A stretch of DNA of 64,000 nt from Deltaproteobacteria bacterium (GTDB lineage Bacteria; Desulfobacterota; Desulfobulbia; Desulfobulbales; Desulfurivibrionaceae). Below the pieces are notes generated by a model, which saw nothing but the letters and a program-made list of their open reading frames with translations, was not told the DNA's origin and did not search any database. The DNA is taken from the NCBI GenBank assembly GCA_013349295.1, contig DUZW01000011.1:1-64000 (forward strand), in the 5' to 3' direction. This document shows positions 12,881 to 19,530 of the stretch, in pieces. Numbering within the stretch: the stretch's first letter is position 1; each line of letters opens with the position of its first letter. The translations under genes and the position numbers were made by a program.

Positions 12881-13139
12881 GCAGCGAGGCCCCCTCTCGT
12901 ATGCAATCCGGCTGTAACACAGCACCGAACCCGCACAAATCGTCCCTAGTGCGTAAAACTATCTCCTCGGAAAAGAACGAAAATTTATCCTAAATTGTGA
13001 AAAGAGTACCAGGAATACAACGGGCAAACCAGATTTTTTTTGACCCCCTCCAAGAGAGTCCCCTGCAAACCGTTATCCCCCGGCATTGTGAACCGGTTAT
13101 TTTTTTTACGCGCCAAAAATCTCAGACAAGGGAAAGGTC
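12881..13139. other. Intergenic region, no gene seen
   Basis: This AT-rich stretch between the M23 peptidase start and the transposase remnant probably contains the promoter of the peptidase-bactofilin unit. An ATTTATCCTAAATTGTG block near 12990 is a plausible but unproven promoter area. No coding frame is convincing. Confidence 0.4.
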
Positions 13140-13267
13140 AAGCTCGTGGTCAATGAGGTGAGTCAGGGAGTATTCAAAGGTGCCAGCAGGATCTGCTTGG
13201 CGAAGTGGATGGGGATGAACTTGCCCTGGGCGCACGAGCACGGTGTGTTGCGGGATATTGCAGTCAT
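13140..13267 (-). pseudogene. Remnant of an IS1182-type transposase N-terminus
   Basis: On the minus strand an ATG at 13267 opens a short frame that reads GKFIPIHFAKQIL. After a one-base deletion (an expected second C in CTGC-TGGCACC) it continues as GTFEYSLTHLIDHELDLS in another frame. This order, an N-terminal segment followed by PGTFEYxLxxLxDHExDLS, is what I know from the start of IS1182-family transposases. Only about 40 codons remain, and the catalytic DDE region is absent. It lies immediately outside the last attC-like site, marking the edge of the accessory block. Confidence 0.6.
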
Positions 13268-13327
13268 TATACAATGAAAAGATGTGCTAATACAGGCCAA
13301 AGTACAATGAGTTGAGTTTTTCTACAG

Positions 13328-13401
13328 GCTCAACGCCAAGTTCACCGGCGGCAATGGAGCGCAGCGGAATTGCCGTCCGAGTGCAGCGCCTTGTTAAGTG
13401 C
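13328..13401 (-). repeat. attC-like integron recombination site 3
   Basis: A 74-base imperfect palindrome directly after the methyltransferase stop. Read on the minus strand it begins GCACTTAAC (R'' box, RYYYAAC fits as CTTAAC with preceding A) and ends GTTGAGC (R' box GTTRRRY). Between them the arms CGGACGGCAAT and ATTGCCGCCGG can pair. Gene, site and orientation match an integron cassette boundary. Confidence 0.75.
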
Positions 13402-13403
13402 TT

Positions 13404-14564
13404 TTATTTAGATTTAAGAGCGTGAAAAATTGATTGCCCAACCACTTTGCTGAGGTCAGAAGGAACAGCATTTCCAAGCTGGCGCATTACCTCCCCCCAT
13501 GCTCCTCGAAAAACAAAAGTGTCAGGGAATGTTTGAATTCTTGCGCTTTCACGAACTGTAAAGTAACGAACACTACCATCTTCAAAGCGAATCATGTTCT
13601 CGCCGCCAGGAACTCCGTGCCCACCGGCCTTTAATGCCTTAGATGGCTCATCTATATAACTGCCAGTATGCCCCGGATAGATTTTGGCGCCATCCTTAAA
13701 CTCATGATGATTATATAACTTAGCCTTTGGAGATTTCGGATCTGGTAGATCTGCTAGAGCATCTCGTACAGTTACCCACGGCTTATGCCGTGGCTCGAAC
13801 ATTCCATACTTGTTGTATAGCTTTTGAATCAAGCTCCGTTCTTTTTCACTTATTAATGGATAGTTAATTTTGTGCCGTGCCCAATATTGTTTTGTTATCC
13901 ATTTATCCCAAAGTAATGCATCCTCTGAATGTGTTGGCTCAGGGAATGTCCATTTGGCATTAATGTCAGAACGAAACCCAACAATAAAAACACGTTCCCT
14001 CTTCTGTGGCACGCCATAGTCAGCCGCATTGACTAAACGATAGACGACATTGTATTCAAGCTCAGTATGTTTATTTTGTGTGTGATAACGCTCAAGTCTT
14101 GCGCGGTGATCTTGCCAATTTTCCTTTGGATTTTTGAAAATTGACGGATACTGTAACTGTAAAACGATGTACTCAAAATATTCAAAAAAGCTCTTCCTTA
14201 GTAGTCCCTTCACATTTTCAAAGACAAACGCACGTGGTTTTTTTTCACGTATTGCGCGAACTGCCTCTGGAAACATATCCCTTGAGTCATTATATCCTTT
14301 TGCTTTACCACCCAAAGAAAATGGTTGGCACGGCGGGCCACCGGAAACGAGATCAATAGTTTCATTCACACTTAAATAGTCAAATTTTGTTACATCACCT
14401 TCGTAAAGCCCAGCTCCATAATTAAATATTTTGTTGGAGCGAATAGTCTGACAGGCATCTTCATTAAACTCGACGATCACTTTGGGTGAAAAGCCAGCTC
14501 CATGAAGGCCAATTGCCAAACCACCTGCCCCAGCAAAAAGCTCAATTGAATTTAGTTCTCGCAT
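13404..14564 (-). CDS. C5-cytosine DNA methyltransferase (Eco29kI-type M subunit)
   Basis: A 386-residue m5C methyltransferase with motif I LFAGAGGLAIGL (residues 9-20), motif IV SGGPPCQPFS with catalytic Cys79, motif VI ENVKG (116-120), motif VIII QKRERVF (near 193) and motif X GNAVPSDL near the C-terminus. The target-recognition region lies between VIII and IX. It methylates cytosine and should protect DNA from the endonuclease encoded 5 bases upstream. If the pair is Eco29kI-like, the target would be CCGCGG (inference from the endonuclease). Codon and base use are more AT-rich than in surrounding genes, consistent with acquisition as a gene cassette. Confidence 0.95.
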   Translation of the reverse strand: MRELNSIELFAGAGGLAIGLHGAGFSPKVIVEFNEDACQTIRSNKIFNYGAGLYEGDVTKFDYLSVNETIDLVSGGPPCQPFSLGGKAKGYNDSRDMFPEAVRAIREKKPRAFVFENVKGLLRKSFFEYFEYIVLQLQYPSIFKNPKENWQDHRARLERYHTQNKHTELEYNVVYRLVNAADYGVPQKRERVFIVGFRSDINAKWTFPEPTHSEDALLWDKWITKQYWARHKINYPLISEKERSLIQKLYNKYGMFEPRHKPWVTVRDALADLPDPKSPKAKLYNHHEFKDGAKIYPGHTGSYIDEPSKALKAGGHGVPGGENMIRFEDGSVRYFTVRESARIQTFPDTFVFRGAWGEVMRQLGNAVPSDLSKVVGQSIFHALKSK

Positions 14565-14569
14565 ATATT

Positions 14570-15229
14570 TTAAATTTCCTGTTTTGGCAGTTTGTACGCT
14601 TTGATCTTTTGTAAGATTACTTCTTTTTCTCGCGGCTGCCCAGTAAGTTGAGCTGCATAATACCGACCGTTATGGAGAGTATCCCATTCAGATGGGGCTT
14701 GATTGTATCTTCCAGCTCCGGGAGCGTTAATGCCAAAACCATCAATATATGAGTTCCACAATGGTCCGTATTGTCGTATTAAGTACGATTCCATAGCGCC
14801 GATCATGTCAGTGGCCCTGCCTTGTAGAATCATGAACCTACAAAGGAAGTCTTCATTCTTTAAATTCTCGGCCTGGTCAATACTTCGTAAGTGTTTCATT
14901 AGCCTTGATCTCAATGCAGTTCCATCTCCGCTTCTCAAACCCTGCCTTGTGCCAGATGGAACTGCCTTGCCAACATAGATAGGATGCATCGGGGGTAAAA
15001 TTCCTTGATAGCATGTCCCGTCAGTTACTTTGAGAAATAGCGCATAAACCCCGGCTCCATTAAATCTTGGTAAATTGTTGAGTTGGAAGTAAGGCGTTCC
15101 CTCAAAGAACTTAAAAGCCGGCTTTACGACAGCATCAATTTTTGTGTCTGAAATTTTTACTATGTGATTGTTTATATCAAACAAAGCAGCTCCCCTTAAG
15201 GTTTGCGCATATTCTGCGATTTTGAGCAC
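14570..15229 (-). CDS. Eco29kI-family GIY-YIG restriction endonuclease
   Basis: A 219-residue type II restriction enzyme. The GIY-YIG core is seen as GVYALFLK (Tyr62) and IYVGKAV (Tyr85), followed by Arg109, His113, Glu147 and Asn159. The spacing Arg-4-His, His-34-Glu, Glu-12-Asn equals that I recall for the active site of Eco29kI (Arg104, His108, Glu142, Asn154), whose length is 214. The predicted target is therefore CCGCGG. The start is a GTG lying within the R' box of the upstream attC-like site; no in-frame ATG precedes residue 81. The methyltransferase follows after 5 bases, so restriction and modification genes share one cassette in the same order as in the Eco29kI operon. Confidence 0.88.
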   Translation of the reverse strand: MLKIAEYAQTLRGAALFDINNHIVKISDTKIDAVVKPAFKFFEGTPYFQLNNLPRFNGAGVYALFLKVTDGTCYQGILPPMHPIYVGKAVPSGTRQGLRSGDGTALRSRLMKHLRSIDQAENLKNEDFLCRFMILQGRATDMIGAMESYLIRQYGPLWNSYIDGFGINAPGAGRYNQAPSEWDTLHNGRYYAAQLTGQPREKEVILQKIKAYKLPKQEI

Positions 15230-15295
15230 TTAACGACCGAGATAAGCGGAAAACTGGCCAGAGGCCGGGTTTTCCGCTTGATTGATTTGTTATGC
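15226..15295 (-). repeat. attC-like integron recombination site 2
   Basis: A 70-base site after the DUF4365 gene. On the minus strand it runs from GCATAAC to GTTAAGTGC, and the arms AAGCGGAAAACC and AGTTTTCCGCTT form a long stem around a CCTCTGG loop region. The ends fit the inverse-core and core pattern of attC sites (R' GTTAAGT fits GTTRRRY exactly). Confidence 0.82.
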
Positions 15296-15309
15296 ATGCC
15301 TAGCCTTTT

Positions 15310-16329
15310 TTAAAGGTCTGAGGTGCTTACTCCAAGTGATGATGGGATACTCCACTCGCGGCAAATTTCTTCAAACATTGCCCCTAAATTCTCTAACTGA
15401 TCCCATAGAATTCTTATTTCCATGAATGTACGAGTTTCTTTGCGTGTATAGAGCCGATTTGCGGAAAATGGAGTAGACCATGCATTCTCCTCTTCATCTT
15501 TGTCATCCTCTGCTCCCGTTTTAGAGTGGCTAAAGATTTGTGGGCGGCCTGAGTTGACAAGGTTTACAAGTTGTTCATGTGCTGTTCGCATTGGATACCA
15601 TAATGGTTCTTGAGTCCAAAAATCATATCGAAGAAGTATTTTGGCAAAATATTGAGCGGTTTCAATTAAAGACTCGTCATAAACATAATCTAGGCGACCT
15701 TTTTGATATGAAAATTTTTGAAATGCTGCATAAAATTTTGACCTTTTGGCATAAAACCTTAGAGCTCCAAGTGAATTTTTGTTTGCTGTTATTTCATTCT
15801 TAATAGGAACATATATCGTTTTATGTTTTTTATCAGAATAGTTTGGGTCATTTGGAAGTAAAATTTTGTCTATATAATCAGTTAAGCATACAAAAAAAAT
15901 TCTATTATTCGATACATCTACTAAAAAAAGTAAGACTGGAACTGCTGCGCCTATCCTTTGAACTGTTACAAGTTCTGGCGTGTCAATCTTGAAAACGGCA
16001 ACTTCTATTTCATGATTCTCAGAGGGTGAATGTAGCTTTTCAGAAACTGGTTTTATTTCGACATTGTAACGAGGTTTAACAGTTAGCTTTTGGGTTTTTA
16101 TTAATTCGCTACCTTTTACCTGAACAAATAAATGTTCTCCAAGAGTGTCATAGGTATCGACACCTTTATCTTTCGATTTTGTCTTTTCAAATAACTCTAC
16201 ATTTAGGTCTATACCGTAGTCAGGAACTAATTCCCTTATGCTCCATTCTTCGGGAAGCATGTTTTTAACTAATTTTACAGCTCTTTCTCCGATAATGTGA
16301 GCTGCAGGCTTTCTTTTAGTTCGGCTCAT
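15310..16329 (-). CDS. DUF4365 nuclease-like protein (cassette-borne)
   Basis: A 339-residue protein whose N-terminal 160 residues match the DUF4365 pattern: GERAVKLVKN, then VPDYGIDLNVELFE (Asp41 in GID) and HLFVQVKGSE (Gln70-x-Lys72). This looks like a PD-(D/E)XK nuclease core, D...(E/Q)xK. The C-terminal half is unrecognised, and no membrane segments are present. Proteins of this type are common in mobile and defence-rich regions, but biochemical roles are poorly described. ATG 16329 is chosen because the 27 codons further upstream run into the attC-like site. It lies between two attC-like sites as a single-gene cassette. Confidence 0.75.
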   Translation of the reverse strand: MSRTKRKPAAHIIGERAVKLVKNMLPEEWSIRELVPDYGIDLNVELFEKTKSKDKGVDTYDTLGEHLFVQVKGSELIKTQKLTVKPRYNVEIKPVSEKLHSPSENHEIEVAVFKIDTPELVTVQRIGAAVPVLLFLVDVSNNRIFFVCLTDYIDKILLPNDPNYSDKKHKTIYVPIKNEITANKNSLGALRFYAKRSKFYAAFQKFSYQKGRLDYVYDESLIETAQYFAKILLRYDFWTQEPLWYPMRTAHEQLVNLVNSGRPQIFSHSKTGAEDDKDEEENAWSTPFSANRLYTRKETRTFMEIRILWDQLENLGAMFEEICREWSIPSSLGVSTSDL

Positions 16330-16356
16330 TAATGTTCCCGCATGTAGAAATTTTTT

Positions 16357-16446
16357 GCATAACGTTTCCCATAACCAGCGGGCCACCAGAACTAGACCGT
16401 CAGGCCGCAAGCGTTCTTCCCGTCTGCGTTAATGGGCTGGTTAGGC
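16357..16446 (-). repeat. attC-like integron recombination site 1
   Basis: A 90-base imperfect palindrome overlapping the SIR2-like gene stop. On the minus strand it starts GCCTAAC (R'' box RYYYAAC), ends GTTATGC, and the arms CCCATTAACGCAGACGGG and the complement of CCCATAACCAGCGGG pair with a few unpaired bases. The extra unpaired bases on one arm are typical of attC. This is the clearest of the three sites. Confidence 0.85.
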
Positions 16447-17487
16447 TGATTCCACTGTTAAAAATTCATTCTCGCCAAGTTTTTCTTCTTCCATAACGAG
16501 GCTATCAACTAACTGTTGAACCTTAGGCCAATCCATATTCGGTTTAAACATATGAGTAGCTTTTGTAAATTTACACTCCATTGTGCGGTCAAACAATTCT
16601 ACAGTTGTGCGCCTTGGATGCTGCGCAAGACTGGACTCGAAAAAGCTTGAGTATATTTGATAATGGTGGGAGTGAATGAATTCTTTCCAGTTATCAACAA
16701 GTTCTTCTTCTGGACGGATGTCAATGAATTCAAAATCTTCAAGATTACGTTTATCTACTGTCCCCCAAGCTTCTTTCATCAGTGAAATTGCTTCAGAATC
16801 AGTTTTGGGGGCACTATACCCAAAAATGGTTACAAGATATGCTCGTTTTAAATTATTACGAATTGCTTTCCAGCTATCTTGTATATACGGGTCTTCGGTA
16901 TAATTCTTGTTGCGGATCGGATAGAGCAATCTGCCTGGGCGAAAATGTCTTCCACATTCAGGACATTTTGCATAAATTATCCCTCCGTATTTATGATCTC
17001 GACAGTAACCTACAAGCACATTCCCATGTAGAAAAGTGAGCAGCGGAAGATCTTTTGTTATTTTTGATGCTCGCTGGTAGGCTTGAAGCAGCAAGGGGTC
17101 CCAATTAAATGTGGCTATAAGATCTTTCTTCCTGAGAGACAGAAGGAGCATATCGTATATGTTGGGATCATCAGGTATCTCCAAGTCTGAAAAATACTCT
17201 CTGATCCTTTCATCAAGGAGCATTCTTATATTTTCACAATCGTCTCTTTCGTGAAGTTCTGTGTAAATATCTTCGAGGTTTATGCTATCGGTTTTTAATT
17301 TCGTATTGGCTATTACTTGGTTCATTCCAAGTTTTTCAATGAACCCCATCATAACGGATGACTTTTTGCCATTTTTGTCTCCGTCAGGGATTGAAGCTAT
17401 GGTTGCTCCAGCCCCAAGAATGACAACATGAGGCCGATTTTTCATGAGGAGCTGAAATTCATTAGCTTCTTCTGGGGTCATCGTCAT
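16441..17487 (-). CDS. SIR2-like NAD-binding protein (probable defence effector)
   Basis: A 348-residue protein of the SIR2-like fold. Seen: the nucleotide-binding loop HVVILGAGATIAS (GAGAT at 25-29), ATFNWDPLLLQAY with Asn128, LLTFLHGNV with the catalytic-type His154, a zinc-ribbon-like Cys162/His165...Cys175/Cys178 set, and VTIFGYSAPKTDSEA (near 219-232). In known SIR2-like antiphage proteins the equivalent Asn and His cleave NAD+ upon infection. Those residues are kept here, so NAD hydrolysis is a fair inference. It is the first gene of the cassette cluster, AT-rich, with its stop codon inside an attC-like site. No HerA, TIR or Argonaute partner is adjacent, so it may work alone. Confidence 0.8.
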   Translation of the reverse strand: MTMTPEEANEFQLLMKNRPHVVILGAGATIASIPDGDKNGKKSSVMMGFIEKLGMNQVIANTKLKTDSINLEDIYTELHERDDCENIRMLLDERIREYFSDLEIPDDPNIYDMLLLSLRKKDLIATFNWDPLLLQAYQRASKITKDLPLLTFLHGNVLVGYCRDHKYGGIIYAKCPECGRHFRPGRLLYPIRNKNYTEDPYIQDSWKAIRNNLKRAYLVTIFGYSAPKTDSEAISLMKEAWGTVDKRNLEDFEFIDIRPEEELVDNWKEFIHSHHYQIYSSFFESSLAQHPRRTTVELFDRTMECKFTKATHMFKPNMDWPKVQQLVDSLVMEEEKLGENEFLTVESA

Positions 17488-17504
17488 TGTATTTCTCTCT
17501 GAAG

Positions 17505-17600
17505 CCTAACTATATTATTATCTAGCGCGAGATAATATTGGCGGGGTATTATCCAGACCATGCTGCATACTTTTGCAAGCCTATCTTAGCGCTAGGCAGC
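17505..17600 (-). other. Possible degenerate attC or attI-like end of the cassette cluster
   Basis: Upstream of the SIR2-like gene the minus strand reads GTTAGGC (a perfect R' core GTTRRRY) just before the ribosome region. It is preceded by an ATTATCT...AGATAAT hairpin and, 90 bases away, GCCTAGC. The core is good, but the far half is weak, so this could be a decayed attC, an attI, or chance. No integrase gene follows in 17600-19800. Confidence 0.4.
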
Positions 17601-17771
17601 TTGTCCATAAAAAACGGGTATCATCCCCCATCCTGCTCCCCAACCTTATCCAGAAATAATCATTAGGCCCTTTCCACTGGTATTTTTTGCCCCTTGTCAC
17701 TTGGCTCGAAAGAGGCTATGCATATTTCTATATAGACACAGTTCTACTCCCCTCTTTTTTCACAAAAACCC

Positions 17772-18058
17772 ATGCGCAAAAAGCACCCTTCATCCCGACA
17801 AACAGCCCCTGTCACCAAAAAATCACAAAAACAAGCCGGGGCAGGGCACATTCGCAGGCTGACGGTCAGCGACGACTTGGGGGTGCTTTTCTCTTCCGGC
17901 CAGGAAAATGAACGGGTACAGAGCTTTGCCGGCGCGCTGGCCACCGGGATTCCCGCAGCCACCCTTGCCGACATCCTGACGGAAAAAGAGGAGCTGCCCA
18001 GCCCGGCCCTGCGGCGACCCATGCCGCTCTTTCTTTCCGGCAAGGAATTATGCCTGAC
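17772..18058 (+). pseudogene. Truncated paralogue of the Smr-domain protein N-terminus
   Basis: The frame from ATG 17772 is clearly homologous to the N-terminal region of the intact Smr gene at 18991. Both share MRK starts, a RxLTxxDDLGxLFS segment, SFAGALATxIPAxTLAxILT and EKEELPxPA. After about residue 85 the similarity ends, and the Smr domain (LDLHG) is missing where the toxin-antitoxin module begins. Upstream DNA (about 17680-17770) also resembles the region before 18991. It is a diverged relic rather than a fresh duplication. Confidence 0.7.
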
Positions 18059-18694: not shown

Positions 18695-18990
18695 AGTCAA
18701 GATGCGCTCCCGATTTTCCATCTGCCCAGTATCCCTGTCAGGATTCACAGTATTGCACCAGGCGGATTCCGGCAAGAAACAAAGGCATCATCAGTGGTTT
18801 TTCAAAGGTTCCCCAAGCGTTCGATCTCCCGCCATGGACAGAGCATACCTCCCCGCCTGAGACAAATAGTGCCCCAGGCCTCTCTTTGCCAGATTCTTTT
18901 TTGCCTCTTGTCTCTTCACAAAAAAAACGCTATGCATATCTCCAGACACACCATGTTTTCACCCGTCTCCTTTTTCCTTTGCAAAGATCC

Positions 18991-19530
18991 ATGCGCAAAC
19001 AGAACCGCTCGCCGCAACAGGCAGGCACCGCCGCCAAATATCCCCAAGCAAAACACGGGAAAACAGCCATCCGCAAACTGACGGCCGGCGACGACCTCGG
19101 CTTTCTCTTCTCCCAGGATCCGGAAGACTCCACCCCGCACAGCTTCGCCGGCGCCCTGGCAACCGCGATTCCCGCCACGACCCTTGCGGAAATTCTCACG
19201 GAAAAGGAAGAGCTGCCGACCCCGGCCCAATCGCTCCAGGCGGCGATACGCAACTCCCCCCCGCCCCAGGACAGGCTAGATCTCCATGGCTGCACTGGTC
19301 CCGAGGCGGAAATAAAGACGAAAAATTTCCTGACCCGAGCCCGGCGCAATCATCTGAAAACCGTCCTGATAATAACCGGCAAGGGGCTCCACTCTCCGGA
19401 AGGCTCGGTACTCAAAGACGTCATCGAGACCAGGCTCAAAATCATGAAAACCGACGGCTCGATCCTCGCTTATCTTTGGGAAAAGAAAGATCGGGAAAAA
19501 AGCGGGGCGTTGCTCGTTTATCTGCCCTGA
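18991..19530 (+). CDS. Smr-domain protein
   Basis: A 179-residue protein with a basic, low-complexity start, a middle region shared with the relic at 17772, and a C-terminal Smr domain (about residues 92-175). The Smr signature is RLDLHGCTGPEAEIKTKNFL and, later, IITGKGLHSPEGSVLKD. Smr domains are nucleases or RNA/DNA-binding domains linked to MutS2 and ribosome rescue; this short stand-alone form is common in proteobacteria. ATG 18991 matches the relic start; an upstream in-frame start at 18886 adds a doubtful leader. Two small genes follow on the same strand. Confidence 0.88.
   Translation: MRKQNRSPQQAGTAAKYPQAKHGKTAIRKLTAGDDLGFLFSQDPEDSTPHSFAGALATAIPATTLAEILTEKEELPTPAQSLQAAIRNSPPPQDRLDLHGCTGPEAEIKTKNFLTRARRNHLKTVLIITGKGLHSPEGSVLKDVIETRLKIMKTDGSILAYLWEKKDREKSGALLVYLP

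What the first reader, a model, noticed from the sequence alone, without database searches (positions are those of the whole stretch)
14570..15229. Cassette-borne Eco29kI-type endonuclease with conserved active-site spacing
Residues Arg109, His113, Glu147 and Asn159 keep the 4-34-12 spacing of the Eco29kI active site, and the protein has near-identical length. Its methyltransferase is 5 bases downstream inside the same attC-bounded unit. Restriction pairs packed as one two-gene cassette are uncommon, and the gene order means the nuclease precedes its protection.
Basis: partly seen in the sequence, partly recalled or inferred. Interest (0 to 1): 0.6.

Follow-up and report, generated by a model that had tools for sequence, protein, structure and literature searches.

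The report
Eco29kI-type restriction system as integron cassette
This is a real two-gene DNA-cutting and DNA-protecting system related to Eco29kI, packed as one movable integron cassette; a 98%-identical copy sits in a Zetaproteobacterium with the match ending at the cassette's own recombination points, so the unit has travelled between distant bacteria, but each ingredient was already known.

Summary
On the minus strand a GIY-YIG nuclease of the Eco29kI family is followed 5 bp later by a C5-cytosine methyltransferase, inside one attC-bounded unit (13334-15233). All six Eco29kI catalytic residues align, with the 4-34-12 spacing. Corrections: the GTG start lies in the recombination core of the preceding attC; a conserved TTG at 15184 (204 aa) is better supported. 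Nuclease-before-methylase order is normal for Eco29kI. Type II restriction genes in integrons are already reported. The unit is the third of three cassettes with no integrase on this contig, in a 4.6-kb block that sister species lack; an intact integron lies elsewhere in the genome. A Zetaproteobacterial genome carries the same cassette (97.7% over 1907 bp), from core site to core site, first in its array beside intI/attI; dN/dS is about 0.13. Eight members form a well-supported clade, five of them cassettes, all with the TTG start. Three near-identical Mu-like phage contigs carry a related methyltransferase without the nuclease, followed by a truncated attC. Most likely a working CCGCGG-specific restriction-modification cassette spread horizontally as a unit; activity, specificity and expression are untested. 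New member of a known kind.

The parts
13334..15233 (-). complete two-gene integron cassette, from TT of the 5' core G|TTAAGT (15234/15233) to the G of the closing attC core (13334), 1900 bp
   Evidence: 5' R' GTTAAGT is the exact reverse complement of the closing R'' ACTTAAC; a 97.7% identical copy in L007 begins at the first core and ends at the second
14570..15184 (-).
   Evidence: PF09517 E 8.7e-49; 3MX1 E 3e-41; six catalytic residues aligned; TTG conserved in window plus seven relatives
13404..14564 (-). C5-cytosine methyltransferase, 386 aa, 54% identical to M.Eco29kI
   Evidence: PF00145 E 7.8e-62; PADLOC MTase_II E 5.2e-149; alignment incl. target-recognition region
13328..13399 (-). 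attC closing the restriction-modification cassette (72 bp; R'' ACTTAAC, R' GTTGAGC)
   Evidence: same attC in L007 4831-4902; a 94% identical attC-like stretch on a Geoalkalibacter plasmid
15228..15295 (-). attC of the upstream DUF4365 cassette; supplies the 5' core of the restriction-modification cassette
15310..16329 (-). upstream cassette gene, DUF4365 domain, 339 aa
   Evidence: PF14280 E 2.2e-13
16357..16446 (-). attC of the first cassette
16441..17487 (-). first cassette gene, 348 aa, no significant family match
13107..17682 (.). block holding the three cassettes, absent from the M23-peptidase/smr intergenic of ten sister species

Best explanation
A functional Eco29kI-type (type II, GIY-YIG nuclease plus m5C methyltransferase) restriction-modification system that moves as a single two-gene integron cassette. 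Shown by sequence: family membership, intact catalytic residues, exact cassette ends, the same cassette in a Zetaproteobacterium at the attI position, foreign base composition, insertion absent from sister species, purifying selection on both genes. Inferred: the nuclease cuts CCGCGG and the methyltransferase protects it; both are translated from one R-M message, with the conserved TTG start restraining nuclease translation relative to the ATG-started methyltransferase; the cassette spreads by integrase-mediated attC recombination and is kept because it restricts phages and/or because its loss is punished.
For: family and active site; methyltransferase and its recognition region align with M.Eco29kI; three attC sites, only 3 of 225 ORF ends pass; 97.7% identical cassette in L007 starting and ending at the G|TT cores, beside intI/attI; intact intI and attC array elsewhere in the same genome; block absent from ten sister species; dN/dS 0.13 and 0.12; G+C 0.43 against 0.55-0.57 in flanks; 8-member clade at 99/98 support, five members being cassettes; TTG start with Shine-Dalgarno-like stretch in all eight.
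Against: No integrase or attI beside this array, so present mobility and expression are uncertain; promoter-like sites are no more frequent than chance. No depletion of CCGCGG clear of chance. 42% REase identity to Eco29kI does not prove the same target. Three of the eight clade members show no attC, so the clade is not exclusively cassette-borne. The Zetaproteobacterial genome is metagenome-assembled.
Confidence: 0.82

Rival explanations
1. The cassette is a stranded, silent passenger: intact genes without a promoter in a cluster of attC sites lacking an integrase (CALIN), kept by chance since a recent insertion.
For: No intI on this contig, nearest on C7; cassettes usually depend on an upstream promoter; promoter scan not above chance.
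Against: Both genes are intact in both copies with dN/dS about 0.13, though that reflects the joint history of the two copies; restriction and toxin-antitoxin cassettes often carry their own promoters (own knowledge).
Confidence: 0.3
2. The system is retained mainly as an addiction module that stabilises the cassette array, as toxin-antitoxin cassettes do, rather than as phage defence.
For: Plasmid-borne Eco29kI causes post-segregational killing (PMC11324026).
Against: Only three cassettes here; the same study shows strong phage protection by Eco29kI; phage contigs carrying an orphan relative of the methyltransferase point to restriction pressure.
Confidence: 0.2
3. The nuclease has a different specificity from Eco29kI.
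For: 42% identity, 4-residue deletion between the two catalytic tyrosines relative to Eco29kI.
Against: Methyltransferase region YPGHTGSYIDxPSKxLKAGxHGVPGGENMIR shared with M.Eco29kI.
Confidence: 0.15

Closest known systems
Eco29kI restriction-modification system (plasmid pECO29, NC_001537)
   Same: Nuclease family, six catalytic residues, R-before-M order with near-touching ORFs, related m5C methyltransferase (42% and 54% identity)
   Different: Here an integron cassette, REase 10 aa shorter with a TTG start, 5-bp gap instead of overlapping stop/start; plasmid-borne and without attC in pECO29
Integron-borne anti-phage and restriction cassettes (Darracq 2025, Kieffer 2025, Getz 2025 as cited in PMC12409362 and PMC12444791; Vaisvila 2001 as cited in PMC12707154)
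   Same: Small one- or two-gene defence cassette bounded by attC
   Different: Eco29kI-type pair; near-identical cassette in a Zetaproteobacterium and in the window's genome; located in a CALIN away from the host's own integron
MTase-carrying CALINs in phages (PMC9892861)
   Same: Methyltransferase next to attC in phage genomes, as in L115-L117
   Different: L115-L117 hold only one truncated attC and a methyltransferase of this specific clade

Membership tests
Eco29kI family of GIY-YIG restriction endonucleases | PF09517 domain above its gathering score | tested here: met
   165.9 bits against cut-off 30.8
Eco29kI family of GIY-YIG restriction endonucleases | catalytic Y49, Y76, R104, H108, E142, N154 | tested here: met
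   all six aligned, spacing 4-34-12
Eco29kI family of GIY-YIG restriction endonucleases | adjacent C5-cytosine methyltransferase, R before M | tested here: met
   order as in pECO29
Eco29kI family of GIY-YIG restriction endonucleases | cleavage of CCGCGG | not testable with these tools
   needs enzyme; site counts give no signal
integron gene cassette | attC with folded stem and RYYYAAC/GTTRRRY cores closing the unit | tested here: met
integron gene cassette | 5' core complementary to closing R'' (same circular molecule) | tested here: met
   GTTAAGT / ACTTAAC
integron gene cassette | same unit found elsewhere with sequence identity ending at the recombination points | tested here: met
   L007, 1907-bp match from core to core
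complete integron at this locus | intI and attI adjacent to the array | tested here: not met
   no intI on C11; intact one on C7; upstream flank unlike own or L007 attI

The most novel reading that the evidence does not exclude
One lineage of Eco29kI-type systems has adapted to life as an integron cassette (short nuclease, weak TTG nuclease start in every member, R-M message), has spread as an exact unit between phyla, and has drawn a phage answer in the form of a captured orphan methyltransferase.
Probability: 0.4. Interest if true: 0.55.

Novelty: new member of a known kind. Interest (0 to 1): 0.36.

Why it matters
It gives a clean example of a defence system moving between distant bacteria as one integron cassette with both recombination ends visible, and a test case for how a toxic nuclease gene placed before its own antidote can be tolerated by a new host. 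It does not change the picture of what integrons carry.

Tried and rejected
An attC covariance model from 12 sites had no consensus pairs and was not used; a scripted core-plus-hairpin test with ORF-end controls was used instead. An attC-like hit next to L050 was inspected and rejected as chance. Upstream flank of the array compared with the host's and the Zetaproteobacterial attI: no similarity. Search for the cassette DNA in 58 relatives: no other copy, mainly attC fragments plus weak matches to a distant relative of the system. Promoter scan not informative. The structure paper of Eco29kI and the 2011 regulation paper are not in the library. An exact integrase-mediated insertion of the phage methyltransferase at a secondary site was considered and rejected: an otherwise 99.6% identical phage contig without it (L121) shows a 102-bp stretch replaced, not a clean insertion.

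Full report
What is there. On the minus strand, ORF 14570-15229 matches the Pfam family RE_Eco29kI (165.9 bits, cut-off 30.8) and the solved Eco29kI structures (E 3e-41). Aligned with the nuclease of pECO29 (L040), all six residues that make up the Eco29kI active site (Y49, Y76, R104, H108, E142, N154; PMC1952068) are present in the same columns, and the spacing R-H-E-N of 4, 34 and 12 is exact. The downstream ORF 13404-14564 is a C5-cytosine methyltransferase (PF00145 E 7.8e-62; PADLOC MTase_II E 5.2e-149), 54% identical to M.Eco29kI, with the stretch YPGHTGSYIDxPSKxLKAGxHGVPGGENMIR in common. The intergenic gap is 5 bp.

Start codon. The window and all seven close relatives (L007-L013) have a TTG codon at the aligned position with a Shine-Dalgarno-like stretch before it, and four relatives have in-frame stops upstream of it. 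The more distant L014, L015 and L017 seem to use ATG. I take 15184-14570 (204 aa) as the gene; Eco29kI has 214 aa. A weak nuclease start in front of an ATG-started methyltransferase would favour the protective enzyme; this is inference.

Cassette. attC sites close three consecutive units on the minus strand (16357-16446, 15228-15295, 13328-13399). With one fixed test (core sequences plus symmetric hairpin just after a stop codon) exactly these three pass among 225 ORF ends in the window. The 5' core GTTAAGT and closing R'' ACTTAAC are exact reverse complements, as expected if one circular cassette inserted. The unit is 13334-15233, 1900 bp.

Same cassette elsewhere. L007, a Zetaproteobacterial metagenome-assembled genome (PFXG01000057.1), carries it at 97.7% identity over 1907 bp; the match begins at GTTAAGT and ends at the closing CGTT. 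There it is the first cassette, directly beside a divergent integron integrase gene and further attC-bounded units. Differences are mostly silent: dN/dS 0.135 (nuclease) and 0.118 (methyltransferase). G+C of the cassette is 0.43 against 0.55-0.57 in the flanks.

Place in the host. In ten sister species the M23-peptidase gene and the smr gene are divergent neighbours; their intergenic aligns to window 12.8-13.1 kb and then to 17683 onward. The block 13107-17682 is therefore an insertion. No integrase lies on this contig; an intact one with its own attC array, and a group II intron RT further along, is on contig C7. The array is thus a cluster of attC sites lacking an integrase.

Family context. 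Trees of the nuclease and of the methyltransferase both give an eight-member clade (99/98 and 100/99 support) of the window, L007 Zetaproteobacteria, L008 Pseudomonas, L009 Gammaproteobacteria, L010 Methylococcaceae, L011 Marinomonas, L012 Vibrio and L013 Photobacterium. A closing attC with the complementary 5' core is present in the window, L007, L009 and L011; in L012 the closing site lies at the contig end and was accepted with weaker cores plus a Vibrio-type attC upstream seen by eye. A short integrase remnant lies upstream of the Marinomonas cassette. L008, L010 and L013 show none. Outside the clade no convincing attC was found, with short flanks in some loci. R-before-M is the rule in the branch with Eco29kI, M-before-R in the other branch and most viral members.

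Phage relatives. Three near-identical IMG/VR contigs with genes I read as Mu-like portal and head genes carry a methyltransferase 76% identical to the window's, without nuclease, followed by an attC of this type lacking its last core. A fourth contig, 99.5-99.6% identical on both sides, lacks it: 102 bp there stand in place of 1243 bp. This looks like capture of the protective half by a phage; function is inferred.

How it most likely works. Unmodified CCGCGG in entering DNA is cut by the GIY-YIG nuclease; the methyltransferase modifies the host's sites. Evidence for CCGCGG is homology only; site counts in the window are unremarkable (29 against 34.9 expected). Expression of the third cassette in an integrase-less array is the weakest link: no promoter stands out. 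Eco29kI itself is controlled by a separate methyltransferase promoter and antisense promoters within the system (PMC12707154), which may hold here but was not shown.

Known or new. Integrons are described as stores of anti-phage systems; type II restriction genes occur in them and are shorter there, and systems of more than two genes are absent (PMC12409362); restriction-modification cassettes are reported in Xanthomonas (PMC12444791); methyltransferase genes in phage attC clusters are reported (PMC9892861). So this is a new member of a known kind, with good evidence for movement as a unit.

Noticed in passing
L115-L117 (3001-4167) and L121: Mu-like phage contigs carry an orphan methyltransferase of this clade plus a truncated attC; a near-identical contig (L121) lacks it, with 102 bp in place of 1243 bp. 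Possible anti-restriction gene.
   Followed up: partly
window 17683-18010 and 18886-19530: A diverged partial copy of the smr gene start (69% nt) sits upstream of the complete smr gene, with an HTH gene and a short RelE-like ORF (toxin-antitoxin-like, by eye) between them.
   Followed up: partly
window 13107-13278: Open stretch on the plus strand at the left edge of the inserted block that reads like a transposase C-terminus (KGKVKLVVNEVSQGVFKGASRICLAKWMGMNLPWAHEHGVLRDIAVIIQ); no Pfam match.
   Followed up: partly
L037 (own genome C7:98400-107422): The host's intact integron: intI, at least four attC sites, an HNH-like cassette gene (by eye), and a group II intron with reverse transcriptase about 2 kb or more beyond the last attC found.
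   Followed up: partly
window 15310-17487: The two upstream cassettes encode a DUF4365 protein and a 348-aa protein with a GAGAT motif reminiscent of SIR2-like proteins but no family match; possible further defence cassettes.
   Followed up: partly
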